64,000 nucleotides of DNA from an uncultured Rhodospirillales bacterium (GTDB lineage Bacteria; Pseudomonadota; Alphaproteobacteria; Acetobacterales; Acetobacteraceae). The notes below the pieces were generated by a model, which saw only the letters and a list, made by a program, of their open reading frames with translations, was not told the DNA's origin and ran no database searches. The position numbers and the translations under genes were made by a program. Where the stretch lies: NCBI GenBank assembly GCA_903865895.1, contig CAIPLM010000310.1, positions 1 to 64,000 of the forward strand. Direction: 5' to 3'. Positions 6,373 through 64,000 of this stretch are shown piece by piece (the stretch's first letter is position 1; each line of letters opens with the position of its first letter).

Positions 6373-7950
6373 TCACACTCGCCGCACGTTCCACGGGTAA
6401 GGCGACGGGCCGGTCAACACCCCCGTCAGGTTTTTGCGGAAGGCGGTCTGCAGATAGAACTGCCCAAGCGGCACGCAGGAGACCTCCTCCATCGCCATGC
6501 GCCCCATCTCCAGCGCGATCCGCGCCTGGGCGGCGGGGTCGGCGGCTGCGAGCCACTCCTCGGCCAGGGTCTCGCTCGGCGGATTGCGCCACCAGCCGAA
6601 CCAGCCGGCCTCGCCCGGGCCGCGCACCAGGTAGTTCACGGCGGGGTTGGCATAGGCCTCGGCCGAGCCGGTGGTGTGGAAGATGCTCCACCCCCCCTTC
6701 TCCACCGGCTCGCGGCTGGCGCGCCGCTGCACCACGGTCCCCCAATCGGTTTCGCGGAAATCCACGTTCATGCCGAGCTTCACCAGCCACTCATTGGTGA
6801 TCTGGCCGAGCGGGCCGATATCGGGGAAATCGGTCGGGTTGATCAGCACCAGCTTCTCGCCGGCATAGCCGGAGGCATCGAGCAGCTTTCGCGCCGCCTT
6901 GAGGTCCCCGGGCATCAGCGCCGTGCCGGCATCGCGGTAGTAGGGCGTGCCCTTGGGGAAGACGCTGCGGCAATCCGTCCAGAGCGACGTATCGTCGCCG
7001 CGGGCGGCGCGCATATAGTCCTCCTGGTTGACCGCGGCCATCATCGCCCGGCGCAACTTCACGTTGTCGAACGGCTTCTGCGCCATGTTCATGCGCATCA
7101 GCGCCAGACGCCCGGCCGGATCGGCGACCCTCACGGTGACGGCCGGATTGCGTTGCAGGGTTGGCACCAGATCAACCAGCGGTCGCTCCCACCAATCCGC
7201 CTCGCCATTGCCAAGGGCCGCGGCGGCGGTGGCGTAGTCGGGGATGACGATCCACTCCACGCGATCGAAATGCGCCACCTTGCCGCCGGCCATCACGTCA
7301 GCCGCCTCCGGGCGGGGCATATAGCGCTCGAAGCGCGCATAGGCGGCGCGCGAGCCGGAGTTGTACTCGTCGGGCAGGAACCGGTATGGCCCGGAGCCGA
7401 CCATCTCGCTCACCGCCTTGTTGGGATCCGTGCGCGCCAACCGCTCGGGCATGATGAAGGCCGGGCCTTCGGACTTGCCGAGCGCGTCAGCCAGCATGGG
7501 GAAGGGCCGGGTGAGGCGGATCTCGATCGTGCGGTCATCCACCGCGCCGAAGCGCTCGGCCACCCGGTTGAGCAACTGGCCGAACGTGTCGCGCTTCGCC
7601 CACCGCGCGATCGAGGCGGCGCAGTCGCGCGCCAGCACCGGGGTGCCGTCATGAAACCACACATTCTCGCGCAGCTTGATCCGCCAAATCAGGCCATCCG
7701 CCGAGACCTCGTGCCCCTCGGCCATTTGCGGCCGCGGATTGAGCTTGCTGTCGCAGCCGTAGAGGGTGTCGAACACGTAGTTGCCGTGCCCGTTGGTGAC
7801 GGTCGCGGTGCCCCAGACCGGATCGACCACGGTGAGATTGGCCTGCGGGATGAAGCGCAGCGTGCGCGCCCGCGTATCCTGCGCGATGGCGGGGGCGGCC
7901 AGCAGGCCGGCGGCACCGGCGATCACGGCACGGCGGGTGGGTTTCGGCAT
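6373..7950 (-). CDS. ABC-type periplasmic binding protein, family 5 (peptide/nickel type), orphan
   Basis: Periplasmic solute-binding protein of the SBP_bac_5 family, which captures oligopeptides, opines, metals or similar ligands for ABC import. The 525-residue product starts at 7950, preceded by an AGGAGC ribosome site; its N-terminus TRRAVIAGAAGLLAAPAIAQ resembles a twin-arginine signal. Family landmarks are LNPRPQMAEGHEVS, NVWFHDGTPVLARD and the C-terminal SCVPLGQFYLQTAFRKNLTGV. It lies 13 bases behind a paralogue, so the two form one transcription unit, but no permease or ATPase gene is nearby. The ligand cannot be told from sequence. Confidence 0.92.
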   Translation of the reverse strand: MPKPTRRAVIAGAAGLLAAPAIAQDTRARTLRFIPQANLTVVDPVWGTATVTNGHGNYVFDTLYGCDSKLNPRPQMAEGHEVSADGLIWRIKLRENVWFHDGTPVLARDCAASIARWAKRDTFGQLLNRVAERFGAVDDRTIEIRLTRPFPMLADALGKSEGPAFIMPERLARTDPNKAVSEMVGSGPYRFLPDEYNSGSRAAYARFERYMPRPEAADVMAGGKVAHFDRVEWIVIPDYATAAAALGNGEADWWERPLVDLVPTLQRNPAVTVRVADPAGRLALMRMNMAQKPFDNVKLRRAMMAAVNQEDYMRAARGDDTSLWTDCRSVFPKGTPYYRDAGTALMPGDLKAARKLLDASGYAGEKLVLINPTDFPDIGPLGQITNEWLVKLGMNVDFRETDWGTVVQRRASREPVEKGGWSIFHTTGSAEAYANPAVNYLVRGPGEAGWFGWWRNPPSETLAEEWLAAADPAAQARIALEMGRMAMEEVSCVPLGQFYLQTAFRKNLTGVLTGPSPYPWNVRRV

Positions 7951-7963
7951 CGCTTGCTCCTGC

Positions 7964-9550
7964 TCAGACACGGCGGACGTTCCAGAATTTCGGCACGCCC
8001 GGCAACACCCCCTCAAGGTCCCGCCGCCAGGCGGATGGCTGGAGGGTAACACCGCAGGGCGCCAGCGGCACGGATTGCAGGCATTCCAGTTGCAAAAGCT
8101 CGGCATAACGCCGCCGCTCCGCCGGGTCGGTGGTGAGCAGCGAGGCGGTGCGTAGCTCCTCATAGCGCGGGCTGTCGTACCAGCCGGATTCCTCGGCGGC
8201 GACCCCGCGCAGGCGGGAATTGACCAGCGGCGAGGCGACGGACAGGCTCGGCACATTGAGGATGTGCAGATGGAAGCCACCGGATTCCGGCGGGTCCTTC
8301 TTGATCACCCGCTGGGTCATGGTCGCCCAGTCCATGTAGATATTGTCGAGGTTGACACCGATGCGCTTCAGCAGATCGGCGAGCACCTCGCTCGCGGCCT
8401 TCACATTGGGGTAATCGCCCGGCGAAATCTGGATGATCTTCTCGCCCTTGTAGCCGGCCGCCGCCAGCGCCGCGCGCGCCTGGGCGGCGGTGAAATGCGG
8501 ACGGATGGCGGCGAGCCCGGCCTCGGTCGCGTCCGGCATGCCCTGCGGATAGAACCCGGCGCCCGGGCGCTGCAACTCGGCCTCGCCACCGCCGACAGCG
8601 TTGACGAAATCCACCTGGTCGATCGCCCGCATGATCACCTGGCGCATCTCCGGCCGGTTGAACGGCGGCTGGAGATGGTTGAAGCGGACGAACATGTAGT
8701 TGCCCTCGGTCTCCAGCACCTCGCCGCGCAAATTGCGGTCCTTGCGGATGAGCGGCAGCAGGTCCTGGGCGGCGTATTCCCACCAATCCTGTTCGCCTTT
8801 CTGCAGGGCGGCGAAAGCGGTGCCCTGGTCGGGCATGGTGGACCACACCACCCGATCGACATGCACGATCTTCGGCCCCGCCCCGCGATCCGGCGTGCCG
8901 GAGGCGCGCGGCACGTAGCCCTCGAATTTGGCATAGACGTTGCGCACACCCTGCAACCGCTCATTGGCGACGTAGCGGAACGGCCCGCTGCCGATGATCT
9001 CGGGGATCTGCTTGAACGGATCGGTCATCGCCAGCCGCTCCGGCATCATCGCCGGCATATAGGCGCCGGGCTTGCCGAGCGCCTCGTGCAGGCGCGGGAA
9101 GCGGCGCTTGAGGCGGAACTGGATGGTGCGGTCATCGAGCGCCGAGATCTCGTCGCTGATCGCCAGCACCTCGCGGCCCAGCACATCCCGCCCGCCCCAG
9201 CGGCGGATACTGGCCACGCAGTCCCGCGCCAGCACCGGCGGCCCGTCATGCCAGCGCAGCCCCTCGCGCAGCGTGATCTTCCAGCGCTTGCCGTCATCCT
9301 CGACGACATGGCCCTCGGCCATCTGCGGATGGGCCACCGAGGCGCCGTCCGTGCCATAGAGCTGGTCGAACACCAGCCCGCCATGGTTGCGGCTGATATT
9401 GGTCATGCTGAAATGCGGATCGAGGAACACCAGGTCGATCTGCGGCATGAAGCGGATCTCGCGCGCCCGCTCCCCCACCGCGATCGCCGGCGCGGCCAAA
9501 GCCGCCCCCGCCATGCCGCCAAGCACTGCCCGCCGCCCGATCCGCGCCAT
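7964..9550 (-). CDS. ABC-type periplasmic binding protein, family 5 (peptide/nickel type), orphan paralogue
   Basis: A 528-residue SBP_bac_5 protein, clearly a paralogue of its downstream neighbour (both carry the WHDGPPVLARDC-type motif, GSGPFRY/GSGPYRF and a shared C-terminal pattern ending in NVRRV). The ATG at 9550 is preceded by an excellent GGAGGTGA ribosome site, which favours it over an ATG at 9574. The N-terminus GRRAVLGGMAGAALAAPAIA again looks like a Tat-type signal. It is the promoter-proximal gene of the pair. Tandem binding proteins sharing an unlinked transporter, or acting with a remote ABC module, would explain the arrangement. Confidence 0.92.
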   Translation of the reverse strand: MARIGRRAVLGGMAGAALAAPAIAVGERAREIRFMPQIDLVFLDPHFSMTNISRNHGGLVFDQLYGTDGASVAHPQMAEGHVVEDDGKRWKITLREGLRWHDGPPVLARDCVASIRRWGGRDVLGREVLAISDEISALDDRTIQFRLKRRFPRLHEALGKPGAYMPAMMPERLAMTDPFKQIPEIIGSGPFRYVANERLQGVRNVYAKFEGYVPRASGTPDRGAGPKIVHVDRVVWSTMPDQGTAFAALQKGEQDWWEYAAQDLLPLIRKDRNLRGEVLETEGNYMFVRFNHLQPPFNRPEMRQVIMRAIDQVDFVNAVGGGEAELQRPGAGFYPQGMPDATEAGLAAIRPHFTAAQARAALAAAGYKGEKIIQISPGDYPNVKAASEVLADLLKRIGVNLDNIYMDWATMTQRVIKKDPPESGGFHLHILNVPSLSVASPLVNSRLRGVAAEESGWYDSPRYEELRTASLLTTDPAERRRYAELLQLECLQSVPLAPCGVTLQPSAWRRDLEGVLPGVPKFWNVRRV

Positions 9551-21911: not shown

Positions 21912-21914
21912 GAA

Positions 21915-22049
21915 AGGAAGGAAGCGCTCCTTTTTTGAAAAAAAGGAGCAAAAAATTGTTATCCGAAGGCTTTGCAGTCTCCCAGAGGGAGCAGTGAACC
22001 AAGTGGATAGAAAGTTTTTGCTTCTTTTTTCAAAAAGAAGCGCTTCCTT
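21915..22049. repeat. MITE-like paired-palindrome element, copy 1
   Basis: An intergenic element of about 135 bp filling the space between the acylase stop and the FAH-family start. Each end carries its own A/T-tract hairpin (21928-21949, CTCC-T6-GA-A7-GGAG type; 22020-22041, its CTTC/GAAG variant), and the two ends are inverted copies of one another over about 45 bases, starting with GGAAGCGCT on each side. The central part is not self-complementary. Two further copies lie at 26164-27436 (split) and 29091-29234. Either hairpin could also end transcription. Confidence 0.85.
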
Positions 22050-27336: not shown

Positions 27337-27436
27337 GGAAAAAAGCTATTATCCGGTTTGCTTCGCGCCCTCCCGGGGGAGTACGCGGCAATCGGATAGA
27401 AAGTGTTTGCTTCTTTTTCAAAAAGAAGCGCTTCCT
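27337..27436. repeat. MITE-like element copy 2, right part (interrupted)
   Basis: This is the interior and right end of the palindromic element. Its interior (TTATCCG...CCCTCCCGGGGGAG...GGATAGAAAG) aligns with that of copy 1 (TTATCCG...TCTCCCAGAGGGAG...GGATAGAAAG), and its right hairpin CTTCTTTTTCAAAAAGAAG with the GCGCTTCC end is the same as in copy 1. It abuts the stop codon of the binding-protein gene at 27440. Confidence 0.8.
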
Positions 27437-27439
27437 TCC

Positions 27440-29020
27440 TTAAGCCCGCTTCACCCCATACATCTGCGGGAAGCCATCGCGCACGTCCTTGATGGAATTG
27501 CGGTGGATGGTCGGCCCCGCGTAGTAGCCGAGCGGCACATAGGGCGCCTCGACGAACAGCAGCTTCTGCATTTCGAGCCCGATCGACTTCTGCGCCGCGA
27601 GATCCGGCGCATCGAGCCAGCTGTCGCGCAGCGCCTCCATCTTCGGCATGCTCGGCCAGCCGAACCACGCCGCCTGGCCGCTGCGGATCGCCGAGGCGGC
27701 CGCCGGCGACACGTTGCCGTTGCCACCGAGATTGGTCATGAAGATGTTCCAGCCGCCCTTGTCGATCGGCTCCTTGCTGGCGCGGCGCTGCACCACGGTG
27801 CCCCATTCGAGCGCCTGGTAGTCCACGTTCATGCCGATCCGCTTCAGCAGATCCGCGGCCACCTGCGAATAGGCGTGCAGCACCGGGATGGAGGTCGGCC
27901 CGAGCAGCACGATCTTCTCGCCATTATAGCCCGCGGCCGCGAGTTCCTTCTTCACATCGTCGTATTTGCCGCTGAGCCGGCCAACCGCCTCGGTGCCGGC
28001 AGTGCTGGCGAGCGGCGAGCCCGGGGAGAACAGGCCGCAGGGGTTCTTGATGATCGAGGGATCGGCGCCGGCGAAGGCGAGGATGAACTCGTCCTGGTTG
28101 CAGGCCGCCATCACCGCCCGGCGCACCGCGGGCTTATCGAAGGGCGGGTTCAGGTGGTTGAAGCGCAGGCAGCCGATCGAGCCATAGGGATCGATGGTCT
28201 TCACCACCATCGCCTTGTCGCGCTTGAGGGTCGGCAGCAGGTCGATCGCCGGGTTTTCCCACCACTCGATCTCGTTATTGGTCAGCGCCGCCGCGATGGT
28301 CGCCGGATCGGGGATCGAATGCCACTCCACGCGGTCGAAATAGGCGATCTTCGGCCCGGCGGAGAACGAGGCCACCCCGTCGGCGCGCGGCACATAGCCC
28401 TCGAAGCGGTCGAAAATCAGCTTGGCACCGACCACGCGCTCCTTGTTGTTGAGCTTGAAGGGGCCGGAGCCGATGAACTCGGTGATCTGGGTGTTGCCGT
28501 CGGTCTTGGCCACGCGCTCCGGCATGATGGAGGCCGGCGCCCCGGTCAGCGCGTCGCGCAGCAGCGGGAAGGGCTTCTTCAGCCGGATGGTGATGGTCTT
28601 GTCGTTGGTCGCGGTGATTTCCTCGGACCGCTCGATCACCAGATTCAGCAGCGGGTCCCGCTGGCCGCCGCGCTTGATGGAGGCCACGCAGTCGCGCGCC
28701 AGCACCGGCGTGCCGTCATGGAATTGCAGCCCGTCGCGCAGCGTCAGCGTCCACAGCTTGCCGTCATTCTCGACCTTCTCGCCGGCCAGCATCTGCAACC
28801 GCGGCTGCAACTGGGCATCGAGCCCGTAAAGCGTGTCGAACACCGCCAGCGAGTAGTTGCGGGTGATGTCGGCCGTCGTCCACACCGGGTCGAGCGAGGC
28901 GGGGTCGGCATGGGGGACGAATTTCAGCGTCTTTGCCGCTCCCTGGCCGAAGGCGAGGTTGGGTGCGGCCAGCGCGATGGAGGCGGCGGCGGTCGATTTC
29001 AGGACGTCTCTGCGACGCAT
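27440..29020 (-). CDS. ABC-type periplasmic binding protein, family 5, orphan (third copy in window)
   Basis: A 526-residue SBP_bac_5 protein related to those at 6373 and 7964: it shares FHDGTPVLARDCVASI, GSGPFKL and EWGTVVQRRAS, the last almost identical to the 6373 gene. The ATG at 29020, preceded by GGGAGA, gives a Tat-like N-terminus (RRRDVLKSTAAASIALAAPNLAFG). No permease or ATPase genes are near. The gene is bracketed by MITE-like element copies 2 and 3. Its peptide-, opine- or glycoside-type ligand is unknown. Confidence 0.92.
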   Translation of the reverse strand: MRRRDVLKSTAAASIALAAPNLAFGQGAAKTLKFVPHADPASLDPVWTTADITRNYSLAVFDTLYGLDAQLQPRLQMLAGEKVENDGKLWTLTLRDGLQFHDGTPVLARDCVASIKRGGQRDPLLNLVIERSEEITATNDKTITIRLKKPFPLLRDALTGAPASIMPERVAKTDGNTQITEFIGSGPFKLNNKERVVGAKLIFDRFEGYVPRADGVASFSAGPKIAYFDRVEWHSIPDPATIAAALTNNEIEWWENPAIDLLPTLKRDKAMVVKTIDPYGSIGCLRFNHLNPPFDKPAVRRAVMAACNQDEFILAFAGADPSIIKNPCGLFSPGSPLASTAGTEAVGRLSGKYDDVKKELAAAGYNGEKIVLLGPTSIPVLHAYSQVAADLLKRIGMNVDYQALEWGTVVQRRASKEPIDKGGWNIFMTNLGGNGNVSPAAASAIRSGQAAWFGWPSMPKMEALRDSWLDAPDLAAQKSIGLEMQKLLFVEAPYVPLGYYAGPTIHRNSIKDVRDGFPQMYGVKRA

Positions 29021-29090
29021 GGTCTGTCTCCCTGGGTGATCGTGCCGGCATCCTGGACTGGTATGCGGGCAACGATCAACAGGGAGGCAG

Positions 29091-29234
29091 GGAAGGGCTC
29101 CTTTTTTGAAAAAAAGGAGCAAAAAACTTTTCCCACTTTGGTTCCTACCGCTCCAAACCATCCCGCAAGGGCAAGCCAACGGCAACAAACGGGTAAAAAG
29201 TTTTTGCTTCTTTTTTCAAAAAGAAGCCCTTCCT
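29091..29234. repeat. MITE-like paired-palindrome element, copy 3
   Basis: About 144 bp lying between the start of the binding-protein gene and the stop of gloA. The left hairpin (29099-29119, CTCC-T6-GA-A7-GGAG) matches copy 1 base for base over most of its length, and the right hairpin with TTTTTGCTTC-T-tract-CAAAAAGAAGC closes it, ending CCTTCC opposite the starting GGAAGG. The interior differs from copies 1 and 2. Short open frames across it only translate the A/T tracts and are not genes. Confidence 0.85.
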
Positions 29235-47013: not shown

Positions 47014-47244
47014 TCACGCCGCCGCGGCAGGTGTACGGGCGACGACAAGCAGATAGTCCCCGGTACCGCCCATCTCTATCGCCGCCGAGCGCATGGAGGG
47101 AATGAGCGTTGGATGATCGCAGGGATCACCGGTGCCGGGATCGATCATGCCCATCGCCGCGATCATCGGCCATGGCCAGAGCCGCGCGCGGCCGCACAGG
47201 CCGGTCACGCATTCCTTGTCGTGGCTCGGAATGAGGTTATGCAT
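47014..47244 (-). CDS. Small hypothetical protein (76 residues)
   Basis: An open frame from ATG at 47244, overlapping the end of the glycosyltransferase gene by eight bases and ending five bases before the MFS start. GGTGAG at a plausible distance could serve as a ribosome site, and third codon positions are strongly G/C, as in real genes here. The product has four Cys and a short hydrophobic run (WPWPMIAAMGM); no family was recognised. It is supported only by position and codon use. Confidence 0.4.
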   Translation of the reverse strand: MHNLIPSHDKECVTGLCGRARLWPWPMIAAMGMIDPGTGDPCDHPTLIPSMRSAAIEMGGTGDYLLVVARTPAAAA

Positions 47245-48301
47245 CGGCCAACTCACCGCGTTCGATGATCGCAGAAACGACGCCGCGCAGAACAGCGTCT
47301 GTGCTATGCCGTTCCAGGAATGTTCGGGCCCCGTGGGCGGAGAGTGCTTCGCCACATGCGGGATCGCCGAGAATCCGGAGAATGGCGGCGCGCAGGGCTG
47401 CGGGATCGCGGGGGGAAACGAGAATTGCGTCTTCGCCATCGGTTGCATATTCGCGGATCGTCAATGTGTCGGTCACAATCACGGGCCGGTTGAGCGCCCA
47501 GGCCTGCAGCATCACCATTTGGCCCGCTGAGATATCGTCCGCGGCGAGCGGAACGACGACGATGTCAGCGGCGGCGACTTGGCGGAGGTATCCCGTGCCA
47601 TAGCAGCGATCGAGGATGACGACGTAGCCGTCTTCCGGCAGCGGAGGGATTGCGGCACGAACGTCACAAATGACCCGTAGTTCGACATCGAGCCCCGCGA
47701 TGGCCGCGAACAAGGTCGGGTAATCACGCGCCGAGCGGCCCGCCGTTACTATGACCGGGCGGATATGCGCGGCCCGTTCCGTGATGGAATCGGCTATGAG
47801 CGTCGATGCCGCATCGACCGATAATCCGTAGGGGACGAAGACGAAATGTGTGCTCGGAAAAAGCACCGCGTAGCGGGTTACCTCGGTGCGTGAATGGACG
47901 ATCGCGAGATCCACAAAACTAAGGACGGCGGAATAATAGGCTCTGCGCATGGCATTGAGGATCAGCGAGCGCCGCGGCGTGAGGATGAACGTATTCACGA
48001 CGATCCGGGTCGCGCGGTGACCACTGAGAAATCGAATAAGCGCGAACACAAAAACTTCGATGTCGTAATTGAGTACGACCGTGTCCGGCGGCGGCGAGCT
48101 TCGGTAGAAAGCCAGGCGGGCGTTATCCAGGGCGACGCGAACCATGCCCGGAAGGCATCGAAACAAGTAGCCGGCCAATGTGCGGTACGAGAGGTCAACA
48201 TATGCGGCGTGAATACGGTGAGGAACGCCGATCGCACGGAGGGCTTGGCCAAACGGCGATTCAGCCGCGTTTCGGGAAAACAGGGGGAAGAAATCGATCA
48301 T
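47237..48301 (-). CDS. GT-B-type glycosyltransferase (group 1-like)
   Basis: A 354-residue protein with a glycosyltransferase GT-B shape. The C-terminal half has a Rossmann-type nucleotide-sugar domain: VIVTAGRSARDYPTLFAAI, VVPLAADDISAGQMVMLQAWALNRPVIVTDT and DAILVSPRDPAALRAAI, the usual GT4 donor-site pattern. The frame is open to an ATG at 48406, but the residues there look non-coding, so ATG 48301 (MIDFFPLFSRN) is preferred, without a clear ribosome site. Base composition is more AT-rich than its neighbours, suggesting transfer. Acceptor and sugar are unknown. Confidence 0.72.
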   Translation of the reverse strand: MIDFFPLFSRNAAESPFGQALRAIGVPHRIHAAYVDLSYRTLAGYLFRCLPGMVRVALDNARLAFYRSSPPPDTVVLNYDIEVFVFALIRFLSGHRATRIVVNTFILTPRRSLILNAMRRAYYSAVLSFVDLAIVHSRTEVTRYAVLFPSTHFVFVPYGLSVDAASTLIADSITERAAHIRPVIVTAGRSARDYPTLFAAIAGLDVELRVICDVRAAIPPLPEDGYVVILDRCYGTGYLRQVAAADIVVVPLAADDISAGQMVMLQAWALNRPVIVTDTLTIREYATDGEDAILVSPRDPAALRAAILRILGDPACGEALSAHGARTFLERHSTDAVLRGVVSAIIERGELADA

Positions 48302-48628
48302 GTCAACATTGTCCCAAAATCGCTTCCTCGTGCCGCATCTGCGCCGGTCCGCGCATGTGTCAAAATGCCGATATAGCAATAATTGAACGGGAGCAAAGCG
48401 CCTCACACGTGGAGCCGAAGCGGCCGATATTTCGGCACGTCGTGATCAGCACCTCGTTCATTGTGATCTCAGCGCAGACGCGCCCGAGACAAACTTGGGT
48501 ATGATCCTGCCGATCGATCGGGGATCAGCACACATCGAATTTCCGCCACGCTCTGATTCCGGTCCGCGGTCAGGCAAACGCCGGCCACGGAAAACCAACA
48601 CGCGGAACACGCGAGCCGCCCGATACGG
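48302..48628. other. Gene-free stretch, 327 bases
   Basis: Between the start of the glycosyltransferase gene and the stop of the binding-protein gene. It is visibly more AT-rich than the surrounding DNA, like the glycosyltransferase itself. I see no convincing gene, repeat or strong hairpin here; it presumably contains the glycosyltransferase promoter. Confidence 0.5.
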
Positions 48629-56793: not shown

Positions 56794-57642
56794 TCAATCC
56801 CGCGGCAATTTTTTCGGCAACAACTTCATCGGCTTCCCCTCCAAATTCGGATACCAAAGAATCGCCTTCCGCTCCTTGCGGGTCAGCCATCGCCGCTCCC
56901 CTTCTCCCTCTCCCCGGTTTCGGGGAGAGGGCCGGGGTGAGGGTGTCTCCACCGCGCGATCCCCCACCGCCCGCTCCCCTTCTCCCGCGTTCGCAGGCTT
57001 GGGCTGCGAAGCAGACCAAGGGCGGGATGAGGATAGTTCCCCAGCCTTGACTCTCTCCAGCTTACGCTCGACTCCCTCTCCCGCACTCGCGGGCTTGGGC
57101 TGCGAAGCAGACCAAGGGCGGGGTGAGGGTCGCGCAACCGGTACACTCTTCGCGCGCCTCCCCCTTACCACCCGCCCCACACACGGCGCATCAATCGCCA
57201 ACACCCAACACATCCGCCGCAACACCCGCTGCGCCTGCGGACACCCCGCCACCATCGCGGCCACCTCCGGCGTATTGAGATGATGCGCAATCATCGCCGC
57301 CGACATCCGCACCTCCTCCCCCAACCGCACCACCCACCCAAACCCGCCCGGCAGCCGCACCCGCGGTGTCGTCCGCTCCCCGCGAACATCCCCCGCCCGC
57401 GATTTCCGCGTCCGAAACACCCCACCCGCCGCCAACCGTGTCATCACAGCGGCAAACCGCCGCCCACCCCCCCGCAAATACCGGTGTATCGCCATCGCCA
57501 CATCCTGCCGCGGATCGCGCAGCATCCGGTTGAACATCTGCTGCACCAACCGATCGACAAACCACAGCACCGCCCCCACCATTTCGGCGGTTCGGTCCGG
57601 CGAGAGGCCGGAAGGCGCAGGGGATGTCGTCACATCATTCAT
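56794..57642 (-). CDS. Hypothetical protein with three in-frame copies of a palindromic repeat
   Basis: A 282-residue product of unknown function. Residues 1-165 look like a helical domain (TAEMVGAVLWFVDRLVQQMFNRML, RQDVAMAIHRYLRGG, MSAAMIAHHLNTPEVAAMVAG); residues 250-282 (RRWLTRKERKAILWYPNLEGK) look like a conserved end. Between them (about 170-250) the DNA consists mainly of copies A-C of an intergenic palindrome read in frame, giving the repeated peptide RPWSASQPKPASAGEG. ATG 57642 is preferred to starts further upstream in repeat-rich sequence. The repeats kept the frame open, which argues that the gene is real, but no family was recognised. Confidence 0.65.
   Translation of the reverse strand: MNDVTTSPAPSGLSPDRTAEMVGAVLWFVDRLVQQMFNRMLRDPRQDVAMAIHRYLRGGGRRFAAVMTRLAAGGVFRTRKSRAGDVRGERTTPRVRLPGGFGWVVRLGEEVRMSAAMIAHHLNTPEVAAMVAGCPQAQRVLRRMCWVLAIDAPCVGRVVRGRRAKSVPVARPSPRPWSASQPKPASAGEGVERKLERVKAGELSSSRPWSASQPKPANAGEGERAVGDRAVETPSPRPSPRNRGEGEGERRWLTRKERKAILWYPNLEGKPMKLLPKKLPRD
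56898..57128. repeat. Three copies of a REP-like palindrome within a gene
   Basis: Copies at about 56898-56943, 56974-57032 and 57072-57128. Consensus features are CCCTCTCCCGC, a small inverted repeat GCG(n)CGGGCTTGGGCTGCG, then CAGACCAAGGGCGGGGTGAGGG. The first copy is a shorter variant with a perfect CTCTCCCCG/CGGGGAGAG stem. Two more copies lie in the gene-free stretch at 57905-58036. All point the same way. Confidence 0.8.
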
Positions 57643-58127: not shown

Positions 58128-58505
58128 TCAGTCCCCCCGATACCAAGAAGGCCGCTTACAGCCCTCAGACAGGCGAAGATCGAGAATGGGATGCCGCAAC
58201 ATGGAAGCATCCCTCACCTGCGTGCCATCGAGCCTGAGTTCTTGCATTTTCCCGAGCCCTGCGATGGGCGCGAGGTCCCGCACCTTTGCCTTGTCGAGAT
58301 TGAGGCGTTGCAGGTTGGCGAGCCCGGCGGTGCCGAGACTTCCCTCCCGAAACCTACGGGTCGCTGTTGCCTGTATCACCTCATCCAACTGCGATATTGA
58401 AATGCCGAGACGAAAGAGCTCAGCAAGGACCTGTCCGGTGAAGTAAAAATTTCCGAGGAAATCTTCTTGCGCTGGAAACTCGGGCCGATCATTCCTCGAG
58501 CCCCC
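58128..58505 (-). pseudogene. Leucine-rich-repeat remnant in the +1 frame behind the STAND gene
   Basis: An open frame of 125 codons with no ATG or GTG start before a TTG at 58388. The translated sequence has clear LRR character: LANLQRLNLDKAKVRDLAPIAGLG, KMQELRLDGTQVRDASML, preceded by a helical stretch (GQVLAELFRLGISISQLDEVIQ). The frame opens at 58505, just inside the 3' end of the STAND NTPase gene, offset by one base. It therefore looks like the 3' part of a gene that lost its start, either the original C-terminal sensor of the STAND protein cut off by a frameshift, or a separate truncated gene. Confidence 0.55.
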
Positions 58506-60129
58506 TCACTCGTTGCAACTTGTCGCGGCAGTCATCCCCGGCCGCTGCGAGGTCAATGATGAATGTGGCTAACTCGGCATCATCGCGCAACAGACTTGGC
58601 GGCACCGGCTGAGGCTGGCACTGAAGCAGCGCCGCTGGCACCTGTCGCCGGACCGCTACCAGCACCGGAGGACTAGTGAAGTGGTTCCCGCCGATCACTC
58701 CACCACCCAGGACGATGCCGATCAGCAGAACCAGCGGCGCGGCGTAGGAGGCGAGGGTGCGCAGCGCCACCGCGCGACGGCGGCCGAGATAGGTCGCGAC
58801 GGCGCGGGCGACGAAGTCGTGCGAGAGTTCCCACACGCTCTGCGTCGCCTCCAGCGGGCGCGCCAGCCCGGCCTCAGCGAGCGCGATCAGCACCGCGCGC
58901 ACCTCCGCCGGGCGCAGCTTCGCCTCCTTCGCCAGTTCCGCCTCCGGCCTGGCCCGCTTGGTGCCCTCCTCGGTCAGCAGCCCGGCCAGCACGCGCGGCG
59001 CCCAGGCACGAATGGCGGGATTGTCGACCGCCTGCGCGACATAGTCCCGCACCAGACGGTTGGCCTCCAGCGAGGTGACGACGCTGCCGCCCCGCGTGGT
59101 CAGCACATGACCGAGCACGTTCAGCGTGATCGGGCGCACCCGGCCCGGCGAATCATCGTATTCGGCGGCGCTTTTGACCAGACGATCCAGCGCCTCGTCC
59201 TTCAGGCCGAGTTTCGAGCCTTTGACGAAGCCGCGCGCCGCGACTTCATTGAAGCGGCCGACCTGGAAGAAGTTGATGCCCTGCATCAGCTTCGGCAGCC
59301 CGATGTCATCCATCCCGGTCTGGTAGTCGCTGCGTAGCACCAGCAGCAGCTTCAACCCGGCGAGCGGGCGCTGTCCGAGGTCGTTCACCAGCGTGGCGAA
59401 CCCTGCGTGACGCTCGGGGCTGCCGAGGATGATGAACTCCTCGAACTGGTCGAGCACAAGCAGCAGTTTGCCGCTGGCGTGTGCGACGGCGGCTTGCAGG
59501 GTTTCGCGAAGCGGGACCGATCCATCGGTTGCGCCCAATACTGTGCGCAGCGCCGCATCGGCATCCGCACCGGCACGCACCGGGGAGATGACCCAGCCCT
59601 TTGCCAGCATGGCGGGGAGGACGAAGGCGTTGAGCAGCGAGCTTTTACCGGCGCCGGAATCGCCTGTCAGATAAAGCGGTGTGGCGTCGGCGTGGGTCAG
59701 CCAGCCGAGGGCGCGGACATGCGCCTGATCGGCGCGCGCGAAGGCTTTGCGATCCGCGTCCGTGGCGAGGTAGGGGGTGATGCGAAAATACCCTGTCGGA
59801 ACGGCGGCCGGCTTAATCGCGAGGTCCATCGCCGCCTTGCGGTTACGCGCCGCTCTCCATTCGTTGGCAAGCTGCAGCGCGATGACCAGCGCGGGCAGGC
59901 CGAACAGCAGGGTGTTGTGCAACCAGGGCCAAGGGAGCCCGAGACCAAAATATTGGAGTGCCAGATCGGCACCCCTGGTCGAGGCAAGAACCAGCATGAT
60001 GCTGGCGAGCAACACCGCCCACCGCCCGAGCAGCTTGCCGACGAAAGAACCGCGCACCGCCTTGACCGCCGCGGGGTCCATCCCCGGCATCCTCGGCAGC
60101 CCTCCACCCAGGGCGGTCTCGACGGCCAT
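58489..60129 (-). CDS. Membrane-anchored STAND-type NTPase with a spanin-like periplasmic tail
   Basis: A 546-residue protein of unknown function. Two membrane helices near the N-terminus (about 36-52 and 70-88) precede a cytoplasmic STAND-type NTPase: Walker A GDSGAGKS at 156-163, Walker B LLLVLDQFEE at 222-231, LLVLRSDY at 262-269 and the closing WELSHDFVARAV at 433-444. A third helix at about 458-480 would put residues 485-546 in the periplasm. That tail (VPAALLQCQPQPVPPSLL...LAAAGDDCRDKLQRVRG) resembles phage Rz1/o-spanin-like proteins in its Cys, Pro and DCRxKL pattern. STAND proteins act as sensors or switches, including in phage defence; a defence role here is inference. An LRR remnant follows in the next frame. 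Confidence 0.75.
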   Translation of the reverse strand: MAVETALGGGLPRMPGMDPAAVKAVRGSFVGKLLGRWAVLLASIMLVLASTRGADLALQYFGLGLPWPWLHNTLLFGLPALVIALQLANEWRAARNRKAAMDLAIKPAAVPTGYFRITPYLATDADRKAFARADQAHVRALGWLTHADATPLYLTGDSGAGKSSLLNAFVLPAMLAKGWVISPVRAGADADAALRTVLGATDGSVPLRETLQAAVAHASGKLLLVLDQFEEFIILGSPERHAGFATLVNDLGQRPLAGLKLLLVLRSDYQTGMDDIGLPKLMQGINFFQVGRFNEVAARGFVKGSKLGLKDEALDRLVKSAAEYDDSPGRVRPITLNVLGHVLTTRGGSVVTSLEANRLVRDYVAQAVDNPAIRAWAPRVLAGLLTEEGTKRARPEAELAKEAKLRPAEVRAVLIALAEAGLARPLEATQSVWELSHDFVARAVATYLGRRRAVALRTLASYAAPLVLLIGIVLGGGVIGGNHFTSPPVLVAVRRQVPAALLQCQPQPVPPSLLRDDAELATFIIDLAAAGDDCRDKLQRVRGLEE

Positions 60130-60259
60130 GCGTGCCCCCGCATCTATTTCGATGCCGCATACTATGCGGTGCTACGTGCGACGCAAGCCGGGCCGTTGTT
60201 GCTTGTATGCCACCCCTCCCACTGTCGGCCGCGTCGCTCCACAATCGCCTCCCCCCAAC

Positions 60260-61285
60260 TCAATCCACCACCACCGGCTTCCAAACCGCCGTCGCCAGCC
60301 GCAAAAAATTGCCGCCGACGATCCCGGCGATCGCTGCGTCGTCATAGCCCCGCGCCAGCAGCCCCTCCACGATCGCCGGCAACGCCTCTGGCGGCAGGAT
60401 CCCGATCCCCGCCCCCGTCGCATACTGCGCCTCCGGCCAGTAGAACCGCTCCCGCGCCCCCGCCCCCCCGATCATGTCATCGAGCGCGCCATGCTTCTCC
60501 AGCACGCTGTCGATCCCGAGCCCCACATGCCCGGCCCCCACCAGCCCGACCACATGGTCGATATGCTCCACCACATGCTCCGCCACCGCCCCACGGCGCC
60601 CCAGGAACGGCCCCACCCCGGTAATGCCGACCACCCCGCCCCCCGCCGCGCATTGCCGGATCAGTTCGTCGCTCACGTTGCGCTCATGGTCCCACACCGC
60701 CCGCGCGTTCGAATGCGAGAAAATCACCGGCGTCGCTGACCGCTCCATCAGCTCCCGCGCCGTCCGGGCCCCGCAATGCGACGCATCGACCACCATCCCC
60801 ACCCGGTTCATCTCCGCCAGCACCTCGCGCCCGAAGCCCGTCAGCCCCGTATCCGCGTCGTGGCACCCGCCCCCCGCCAGGTTGTTGCGATTATAGGCGA
60901 ACAGCATCTGCCGCACGCCGAGCTTGTAGAACACGTCGACCATCCCCGCATCGCCATTCAGCGCATTCGCCCCTTCGATGTCGAACCCGATCGCGATCTT
61001 CCCCTCGCTGCGCGCCCGCGCAATGTCCCCCACCCCGATCGCCGGCACCACCAACGCCCGATGCGCGCGCATCCAATGCCGATACGCCGACGCCGCCTCC
61101 AACGCCGTCGTCCACGGCTGGTAGTCGTAGCCGATATTCACCGACACATAGTCGATCCCCGCCGCCCGCCACCGCCCCAGCTCCTCCAGGTCCCCCGCCC
61201 GCTCGAACGGAAACCCCGCATGCGCATCCCACACCACCACGCGCGCCAGAATCTCCCGCGCCCGCGCCCCGAATTCCCCCGACAT
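60260..61285 (-). CDS. Membrane dipeptidase-family (M19) protein lacking one canonical metal ligand
   Basis: A 341-residue renal-dipeptidase-like amidohydrolase. Metal-site elements are the N-terminal WDAHAGFP (H22), Glu in IGFDIEGANAL, His in VVDASHCG and His in VIFSHSNARAVWDHERNVSDE. The second ligand of the canonical HxD is Gly24 here instead of Asp, so the dinuclear zinc site must differ. No signal peptide is visible. Members hydrolyse dipeptides, including D-amino-acid-containing ones. The gene runs toward the STAND gene, 131 bases away. Confidence 0.86.
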   Translation of the reverse strand: MSGEFGARAREILARVVVWDAHAGFPFERAGDLEELGRWRAAGIDYVSVNIGYDYQPWTTALEAASAYRHWMRAHRALVVPAIGVGDIARARSEGKIAIGFDIEGANALNGDAGMVDVFYKLGVRQMLFAYNRNNLAGGGCHDADTGLTGFGREVLAEMNRVGMVVDASHCGARTARELMERSATPVIFSHSNARAVWDHERNVSDELIRQCAAGGGVVGITGVGPFLGRRGAVAEHVVEHIDHVVGLVGAGHVGLGIDSVLEKHGALDDMIGGAGARERFYWPEAQYATGAGIGILPPEALPAIVEGLLARGYDDAAIAGIVGGNFLRLATAVWKPVVVD

Positions 61286-61417
61286 CCCAGCCCCCTTGCC
61301 AATCCCGCCACCAACCCTTCGCCGGCGGTTGAGCGCAGTCTTGTTTCATAGCGGAACGAGGTTCTTCGGTCGACGGACCCTGCGTTGCAGGGCCCGCCCG
61401 GGGCATTTGGCGATCAT

Positions 61418-61709
61418 CGACCTCTCTTGCTCCCGTGTCCTCCGCGACCGGTCCCGATGTTGCCGCGGGATTGCCGTGCGGCCGCATGTGTCCATGCATG
61501 CCTTCGATCGCCCGGTGCTCGTCGGCGTGCCTCTTGCGACGGTTGCTGATGCGCTGTGCACGCCGGTCTGGGTCTATGGCGGCACCATGCGGGCGCGGCT
61601 CAGAGGGTCTCAAGCTGTGCCAGCCGGGCGCGATCCGCGGGGGCATTATGTGTTGAGGGGGAATGATCATCGCGCCGTACTCAGCATCTTCGCCAATGGC
61701 AGCGCCTGA
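61418..61709 (+). pseudogene. Decayed partial duplicate of the 5' part of lysA
   Basis: The stretch aligns base for base over long runs with codons 1 to about 95 of intact lysA at 62566 (for example TGTCCTCCGCGACC, CATGCATGCCTTCGAT, GGCACCATGCGGGCGCGGCT in both). The start codon is lost, at least one single-base deletion near 61470 breaks the frame, and the PLP-binding lysine codon of GTG-AAG-GCG has become AGG. It ends in a TGA. Nothing after codon 95 is present. Confidence 0.88.
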
Positions 61710-61899
61710 GTGCGCTCGGCCGTAGTAAATAGAAAATACGCAGAAATACGTATGCGATGAGATTTTCCGAACAGGTTCCGACCGGAAATATTATATTTGA
61801 TGAAAATTTTTGGTGATTGTCTTGTTTCGCCGGAAGAGGTTGTGGAAAATGCCGATAGTTCGCTGATCCAAGCGAGCGCAATCATGAGGAAGGGGCTAA
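61710..61899. other. AT-rich gap of 190 bases upstream of the small secreted protein gene
   Basis: This stretch (for example AATATTATATTTGATG near 61788 and repeated A/T runs) is by far the most AT-rich in the window outside the palindromic elements. It probably holds the promoter of the small secreted protein gene and looks foreign to the surrounding GC-rich DNA. I see no gene in it. Confidence 0.5.
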
Positions 61900-62307
61900 A
61901 TGAAACACGTAACACGCATCCTGGGAGCCGCGGCTGTGATTCTCGCTAGCCTGCCGGGGCTTGCCCTCGCCGGCGAGAAGCAGATCTGCAACCAGTCTTC
62001 GTTGCCTATCACGGTCCAGTTGACCCCTCGCCTGGGCTCCAATCCCGGTGACGGCGACCTCGCGATCGTCGGTGCTTCGCTGGCAGCGAACTCCTGCACC
62101 TCCGTTATCTATAGCGGGTCCACCGATCCCTATCTGAATGATTTCAAGGTTCTCGTGCGCGTCGGCAAAAGTTTCGTCGCGCACGGCATGAGTGTCGGCA
62201 AGAACGATCGTTCGGGGCTCGTCGATCAGGCGCTCAACCTGAACAGCAAGGTCGACATCAACGTCAACACGAACGGTTATAGCATCGCTATGGCGTGGCA
62301 TAACTGA
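61900..62307 (+). CDS. Small secreted protein of unknown function (135 residues)
   Basis: The product has a clear signal peptide (HVTRILGAAAVILASLPG) with a likely cleavage site after ALA, leaving about 110 residues. The mature part has two Cys (QICN and NSCTS), is rich in Asn, Ser and Val, and looks like an all-beta domain. AGGAAGGG upstream of ATG 61900 is a good ribosome site. No family was recognised. It lies alone in an AT-rich island between the lysA fragment and lysA, which suggests arrival by transfer. Confidence 0.75.
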   Translation: MKHVTRILGAAAVILASLPGLALAGEKQICNQSSLPITVQLTPRLGSNPGDGDLAIVGASLAANSCTSVIYSGSTDPYLNDFKVLVRVGKSFVAHGMSVGKNDRSGLVDQALNLNSKVDINVNTNGYSIAMAWHN

Positions 62308-62565
62308 TACTCTGCGTGGCTCGGCGGGAGGTTTTCCGAAACTTTCTCGCCGTTACACGCAGTACAGTACGGCGTTTTTTGACGTCGTCCTCCCCCACCC
62401 GCAAAGTTGGGCGCGGCACACGGCATCTGGCGGGGTCGCTGCGTCCCATCCCAAGCCAGCGCCTCTGCCGTTCTGCCGGCCGCCGGAGGGGGGGGTCGTG
62501 TTTGCAGGTGTGGGCCACGCGGCAAATTGCTTGGCGCCGGGCCGGGGCGTGGCTACTCTCCCCCT

Positions 62566-63888
62566 ATGGCCTCCCTCGCTCCCCTGTCCTCCGCGACCGA
62601 TCCCGACGTTGCCGCGCTGATTGCCGCGCGGCCGCATCTGTCCATGCATGCCTTCGATGGCCTGGTGCTCGAGGGCGTGCCGCTCGCGGCGATTGCCGAT
62701 GCTCTGGGCACCCCCGTCTGGGTCTACGGCGCCGGCACCATGCGGGCGCGGCTGAAGGAACTGCAAGCGGCGCTCGCCGGTCTCGATGCGCATGTGCATT
62801 ACGCGGTGAAGGCGAATGACCATCTCGCCGTCCTCAGCGTTTTCGCGCGCGGTGGCGCCGGGGCCGATGTGGTGAGCGGCGGCGAGTTGCTGCGCGCCCG
62901 CAAGGCCGGCGTGGCGGCGGACCACATCGTCTTTTCCGGCGTGGGCAAGACCGAGGCCGAGATCCGGCTCGCGCTGGGGGAAGGCATCTTCCAGATCAAC
63001 GTCGAAAGCGCGGCCGAACTCGCGATGATTTCGCAGATCGCCACCGCCATGGGCCGCATGGCGCAGGTCGCGCTGCGGGTGAACCCCGATGTCGATGCCG
63101 GCACCCACGCCAAGATCACCACCGGCAAGGCCGAAAACAAGTTCGGCATTCCCTATGACGACGCGGCAGCGCTCTACGCCCACGCGGCCACCCTCCCCGG
63201 CGTGCAGCCGGTCGGCATCGCGCTGCACATCGGCAGCCAGATCCTCTCCACCGCGCCCTACCGCGCCGCCTTCGCCCGCGCCGCCGAGCTGATCCGTACG
63301 CTCCGCGCCAACGGCCAAACGGTCAGCCGGATGGATTGCGGCGGCGGCATCGGCATCGGCTACCAGGATGAGCCGGGCGCCTCCCCCGCCGCGCTGGCCG
63401 GCGCCATGCGCGCGGCATTCGGCGAAATGGGCCTGCAATTGATGGTGGAACCCGGCCGCTGGCTGGTCGGCCCGGCCGGCCTGCTGCTCGCCTCGGTGAT
63501 CCTCACCAAGGGCGACGAGCGCTTCGTGGTGATCGATGCCGCGATGAATGATCTCGTCCGCCCCGCGATGTATGAGGCCTGGCACGGCATCGTCCCGCTG
63601 GCCGCCGGCAACGCGGTGGGGGCCACCTCCCTGGTCGACGTCGTCGGCCCGATCTGCGAATCGAGCGACACCTTCGCCACCTCCCGCGCGCTGCCGCGCC
63701 TCCCCGCCGGGTCGCGCGTCGCGATCCTCGATGCCGGGGCCTATGGCGCGGTGATGAGCTCCACCTACAACGCCCGCGGCCTGCCGCCGATCGCCATGGT
63801 CGATGGCGATCGCTGGTCGGTGATCCGCCCGCGCCAGGATGTCGAGGCGATGTGGGCCAACGAGACCATCCCGGATTTCCTGCCGTGA
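62566..63888 (+). CDS. lysA: Diaminopimelate decarboxylase
   Basis: Last step of lysine synthesis: PLP-dependent decarboxylation of meso-diaminopimelate. The 440-residue product has the cofactor lysine K82 in VHYAVKANDH, ARGGAGADVVSGGEL, the phosphate-binding region with SRMDCGGGIGIGY, EPGRWLVGPAG, and the substrate-site GPICESSDTFA, with the Cys contributed across the dimer. ATG 62566 gives the normal family N-terminus; the frame is open upstream but the sequence is non-coding. Its TGA overlaps the GTG of the next gene. Confidence 0.96.
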   Translation: MASLAPLSSATDPDVAALIAARPHLSMHAFDGLVLEGVPLAAIADALGTPVWVYGAGTMRARLKELQAALAGLDAHVHYAVKANDHLAVLSVFARGGAGADVVSGGELLRARKAGVAADHIVFSGVGKTEAEIRLALGEGIFQINVESAAELAMISQIATAMGRMAQVALRVNPDVDAGTHAKITTGKAENKFGIPYDDAAALYAHAATLPGVQPVGIALHIGSQILSTAPYRAAFARAAELIRTLRANGQTVSRMDCGGGIGIGYQDEPGASPAALAGAMRAAFGEMGLQLMVEPGRWLVGPAGLLLASVILTKGDERFVVIDAAMNDLVRPAMYEAWHGIVPLAAGNAVGATSLVDVVGPICESSDTFATSRALPRLPAGSRVAILDAGAYGAVMSSTYNARGLPPIAMVDGDRWSVIRPRQDVEAMWANETIPDFLP

Positions 63889-64000
63889 CCAACAAGCCGC
63901 AGGCGCCGGACGAGACCGATGTCTTGTTCTACGTCCTGCGGCGCAAGCGCGCCCAGGCGCGACTGGCGATGCTGTACGAGCGGATATGGCCCGCACTCTG
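63885..64000 (+). CDS. TIGR02302/DUF4175-like membrane protein, N-terminal fragment (cut by window end)
   Basis: A frame starting at GTG 63885, overlapping the lysA stop (GTGA), with about 38 residues visible. RKRAQARLAMLYERIWPAL matches the start of the large TIGR02302-family proteins that follow lysA in many alphaproteobacteria, which begin with such an Arg-rich stretch before membrane helices. Identification rests on this short motif and on position. Confidence 0.6.
   Translation, partial: MTNKPQAPDETDVLFYVLRRKRAQARLAMLYERIWPAL

What the first reader, a model, noticed from the sequence alone, without database searches (positions are those of the whole stretch)
61418..62568. Decayed 5' copy of lysA with a small secreted gene between it and intact lysA
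The fragment matches codons 1-95 of lysA but has lost its start, frame and cofactor lysine. Between the two copies lies an AT-rich island with one secreted-protein gene. This could be an insertion that duplicated the 5' end of its target, like elements that rebuild the gene they enter, followed by decay of the displaced copy.
Basis: partly seen in the sequence, partly recalled or inferred. Interest (0 to 1): 0.5.

Follow-up and report, generated by a model that had tools for sequence, protein, structure and literature searches.

The report
Decayed partial lysA copy, orphan gene
A dead, old copy of the first part of a lysine-making gene sits just upstream of the working gene, with one small orphan secreted-protein gene between them; this looks like ordinary gene debris at a rearranged spot, with no sign of a mobile element.

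Summary
Window 61421-61693 matches the intact lysA (62570-62846) at 82% identity (E about 1e-69), with one net frameshift, an in-frame 3-base loss, no start codon and the cofactor lysine replaced by arginine. Between the copies lies an AT-rich stretch with a 135-aa ORF of native-like codon usage and a signal-peptide-like start. Using the closest congener's lysA as a third sequence, changes private to the fragment fall on codon positions 13/17/8 (1st/2nd/3rd), while those private to the intact gene fall 1/0/13. So the fragment decayed without constraint while lysA stayed under purifying selection. The copy is about as old as the split from that congener, with branching order unresolved. The 'element that rebuilds its target' idea gets no support: no integrase, tRNA or target-site repeat was found, the first 95 codons of intact lysA are no more diverged from the congener than the rest, and clear homology stops at the lysA start. 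Upstream of lysA, none of the four other genus members held is collinear with the window, so this is a rearrangement-prone junction. Best reading: a partial lysA duplication made during local rearrangement, plus a lineage-specific orphan gene. Low interest.

The parts
61421..61707 (+). Decayed copy of about the first 95 codons of lysA (pseudogene fragment): no start, one net frameshift, 3-base loss, cofactor lysine codon changed
61708..61899 (.). AT-rich (44% GC) spacer upstream of the small ORF
61900..62307 (+). 135-aa orphan ORF with signal-peptide-like N-terminus; native-like codon usage; no clear homologue found
62308..62565 (.). Spacer before intact lysA; only the last 36 bases align with the congener G001
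62566..63888 (+). Intact lysA, diaminopimelate decarboxylase
   Evidence: TIGR01048, 423.8 bits, cut-off 297.9
60260..61285 (-). Peptidase M19 (membrane dipeptidase) gene, left neighbour; homology with G001 stops at window 61302

Best explanation
The fragment is a non-functional partial duplicate of lysA, made when DNA upstream of lysA was rearranged, and it has decayed neutrally since. It does nothing now. The small secreted-protein gene between the copies is a separate, lineage-restricted orphan gene whose arrival may or may not have been the same event. Shown: homology, neutral decay of the fragment, constraint on lysA, lack of the island in the relatives searched, non-collinear DNA upstream of lysA in the congeners. 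Inferred: that duplication and rearrangement were one event, and the mechanism (illegitimate recombination or breakpoint repair leaving a duplicated stretch).
For: Fragment-private changes 13/17/8 by codon position against 1/0/13 for lysA (Fisher P = 4e-6). Best match of the fragment is the genome's own lysA among 299 family genomes. In a 5-kb comparison G001-G004 match the window only from about 62530, 62608, 62566 and 62554 onward (lysA and the next gene), apart from the fragment's own match to their lysA, and M19 is not near their lysA. The M19 orthologue in G001 lies on another contig behind a TRAP-transporter-like gene, with homology ending at window 61302. The neighbour 58489-60129 also loses homology with G001 at 60188. 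The island DNA occurs in 1 of 24 genomes, own only.
Against: The left edge of the fragment lies within a few bases of the lysA start codon, which random breakage does not predict. Upstream identity at the fixed offset is 17 of 38 against a background of 10.6 (P 0.03), so a short, heavily decayed extension cannot be excluded. Branching order among fragment, lysA and G001 lysA is unresolved: the best tree puts the fragment with G001 at 69% support, and the AU test rejects none of the three. Arrival from a close relative is therefore not excluded. G001's contigs are short, so its junctions are known only in part.
Confidence: 0.75

Rival explanations
1. A small element carrying the secreted gene and its own lysA 5' end entered lysA and rebuilt it; the fragment is the displaced native 5' end.
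For: Arrangement fragment - gene - intact lysA; lineage-restricted, AT-rich insert; duplicate starts close to the start codon; the best tree puts the fragment with G001, as a native 5' end would be, though with 69% support only.
Against: No integrase or tRNA in the stretch, and only one gene. Third-position divergence of lysA from G001 is even along the gene: 36/95 in the first block against 42, 44, 36 of 95 and 20/60, so no foreign 5' end is visible. No repeat other than the lysA copies and short chance matches flanks the insert.
Confidence: 0.08
2. Tandem duplication of a unit reaching from the small gene's left side into lysA, followed by deletion of the left part of the first copy.
For: Direct orientation and short distance (offset 1149-1153).
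Against: No second copy of the small gene or of the lysA upstream stretch left of the fragment; needs an extra deletion ending near the start codon.
Confidence: 0.1
3. The fragment came by transfer from a close relative's lysA and never worked here.
For: The tree does not exclude a branch with G001 (69% support; 5 shared derived sites against 1 with own lysA).
Against: No excess of third-position differences, which a functional donor lineage would have gathered; the best similarity is to its own lysA.
Confidence: 0.07

Closest known systems
Truncated, disabled pseudogene copies in prokaryote genomes (survey PMC522871; start of abstract seen in search listing only)
   Same: Disabled, truncated, frameshifted copy of a gene still present intact.
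   Different: Nothing essential; that survey's abstract stresses failed horizontal transfer, while here the closest match is the genome's own gene.
Integrative elements that replace an end of their target gene (recalled, no paper read)
   Same: Two copies of one gene end flanking a foreign-looking stretch.
   Different: No integrase, no attachment-site repeat, no evidence of a replaced end.

Membership tests
Pseudogene fragment (partial duplicate) | Significant similarity to an intact gene with disabling changes | tested here: met
   82% identity, frameshift, no start codon, truncated
Pseudogene fragment (partial duplicate) | No purifying selection on the copy | tested here: met
   Private changes 13/17/8 by codon position
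Integrative element that rebuilds its target gene | Integrase or its remnant | tested here: not met
   One ORF with a coding signal in the stretch, no family match to it
Integrative element that rebuilds its target gene | Intact 5' end is the imported one | tested here: not met
   Even third-position divergence from G001 along lysA
Integrative element that rebuilds its target gene | Direct repeats (attachment sites) at both ends | tested here: not met
   Only the lysA copies and short chance repeats
Diaminopimelate decarboxylase (lysA) | Match over the curated cut-off of TIGR01048 | tested here: met
   423.8 bits against 297.9, for 62566-63885

The most novel reading that the evidence does not exclude
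A minimal, integrase-less cassette carrying one secreted-protein gene inserts at the 5' end of lysA by way of a carried lysA 5' copy, keeping lysA intact while leaving the old 5' end behind.
Probability: 0.04. Interest if true: 0.5.

Novelty: new member of a known kind. Interest (0 to 1): 0.12.

Why it matters
It matters little beyond annotation: the fragment should be marked as a lysA pseudogene, and the 135-aa ORF as an orphan secreted protein. It is a tidy case where neutral decay next to a constrained parent can be read from one genome and one relative.

Tried and rejected
Element that rebuilds its target: no integrase, tRNA or attachment repeat, and no foreign 5' end on lysA. RNA feature: no Rfam match in 60000-64000. 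Promoter or terminator: 0 promoter-like and 1 terminator-like site, as shuffles give. Orphan ORF: no Pfam, NCBIfam or PHROGs family; no convincing PDB sequence (one match at E 0.9); no plasmid or phage record. None of the 63 pattern matches in genome contigs and none of the 23 in viral contigs was confirmed as a relative. Own genome only in 100 relatives and in 397 family genomes. In 385 class genomes, own plus four weak matches at E 0.002-0.009, two of them interrupted by stops. The locus of one uninterrupted match was looked at and showed no ORF that looked like a small secreted protein; the other (L049) was not looked at. Structure: single-sequence model with mean pLDDT 38.7, useless, so no fold search was made. 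(argH, the G001 TRAP region, the G001 lysA upstream region) gave no intact ancestral junction. Papers: searches gave nothing specific to this arrangement; only listings and starts of abstracts were seen.

Full report
Observation. The fragment is real. BLAST aligns 61421-61693 to 62570-62846 at 82% identity, E 4e-69 in a self-comparison of the window, and the whole genome holds just these two matches. Ungapped stretches run at offsets 1149, 1150 and 1153, so there is one net 1-base loss and one 3-base loss. The position of the start codon reads TCG, and the lysine codon of YAVKAND reads AGG. Identity fades after about 61709. Left of the start codon there is no clear homology: 17 of 38 positions at the fixed offset, background mean 10.6, P 0.03. 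Intact lysA is over the curated cut-off of TIGR01048.

Decay test. G001, the closest of the four other genus members held, gives a third sequence. Over 287 aligned sites, changes private to the fragment number 13, 17 and 8 at codon positions 1, 2 and 3. Those private to intact lysA number 1, 0 and 13, and those private to G001 lysA 5, 0 and 19. Six sites differ in all three. Fragment against lysA, positions 1+2 against 3: Fisher P = 4e-6. The fragment thus evolved without coding constraint and lysA with it. There is no excess of third-position change in the fragment, as would be expected had it diverged as a working gene elsewhere.

Age and origin. Trees of fragment, lysA and four congeners do not settle the order. 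The best tree puts the fragment with G001 lysA (69% support), but the AU test keeps all three arrangements under two models. By outgroup polarity five sites are shared derived between fragment and G001 and one between fragment and own lysA; third positions of the outgroups are strongly diverged, so I give this little weight. The duplication is therefore about as old as the split of the two species. Among 299 family genomes, 71 with a match, the best match apart from the fragment itself is own lysA, then G001.

Surroundings. In a comparison of window 59001-64000, G001-G004 align only from window 62530, 62608, 62566 and 62554 onward, that is from lysA or up to 36 bases before it, into the next gene, apart from the fragment's own match to their lysA; M19 is not found near their lysA, and their upstream ORFs differ. 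In G001 the M19 orthologue is at a contig end behind a gene that looks like a TRAP transporter solute-binding protein (named by eye), and homology stops at window 61302. The gene 58489-60129 has a G001 relative at about 90% identity whose homology stops at 60188. So several junctions around lysA are breakpoints between congeners; a duplicated gene stub at such a place is ordinary.

The island. DNA 61700-62560 was found in 1 of 24 genomes, own only. The 135-aa ORF has a codon-usage score (0.113) above the other five frames (best -0.214) and all 500 shuffles (maximum -0.321), with GC3 0.76 against 0.67-0.92 in 12 nearby genes. It is probably a real gene. No clear relative was found: own genome only in 100 relatives and in 397 family genomes; own plus four weak matches, E 0.002-0.009, in 385 class genomes; none in plasmids, phages, Pfam, NCBIfam or PHROGs. 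Its function is unknown; the signal-peptide call is by eye, and the structure model was of no use.

Against the element reading. There is no integrase and no tRNA, and no repeat other than the lysA copies and short chance matches. If the intact 5' end had been brought in, the first 95 codons should stand out. Third-position differences from G001 are 36/95 there and 42/95, 44/95, 36/95 and 20/60 in later blocks. The first block is more diverged than later ones against G002-G004, but the same tendency is seen between G002, G003 and G004 themselves.

Verdict. An old, neutrally decayed lysA stub next to an orphan secreted-protein gene at a rearranged junction. It is ordinary, and of low interest.

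Noticed in passing
window 21912-22049, 27389-27437, 29087-29234: Dispersed repeat of about 45-145 bases, also found just upstream of lysA in congener G001 (L045:10754-10812) and elsewhere on its contigs; looks like a multi-copy hairpin-type repeat.
   Followed up: partly
L045:9944-10560 (G001): Roughly 600-base dispersed coding-like repeat upstream of G001 lysA with several 77-78% copies in the window's own genome, and a shorter roughly 58-base repeat in all five genus genomes.
   Followed up: no
window 56978-57128: Two direct copies of a 55-base unit at 91% identity upstream of the gene-poor stretch near 57000.
   Followed up: no
window 6679-9328 and 27740-28843: Three stretches 63-66% identical to each other, probably paralogous genes.
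   Followed up: no
window 47237-48406: Glycosyltransferase-like ORF (by eye) with GC3 0.67 against 0.82-0.92 for the other 11 nearby genes measured, possibly acquired.
   Followed up: no
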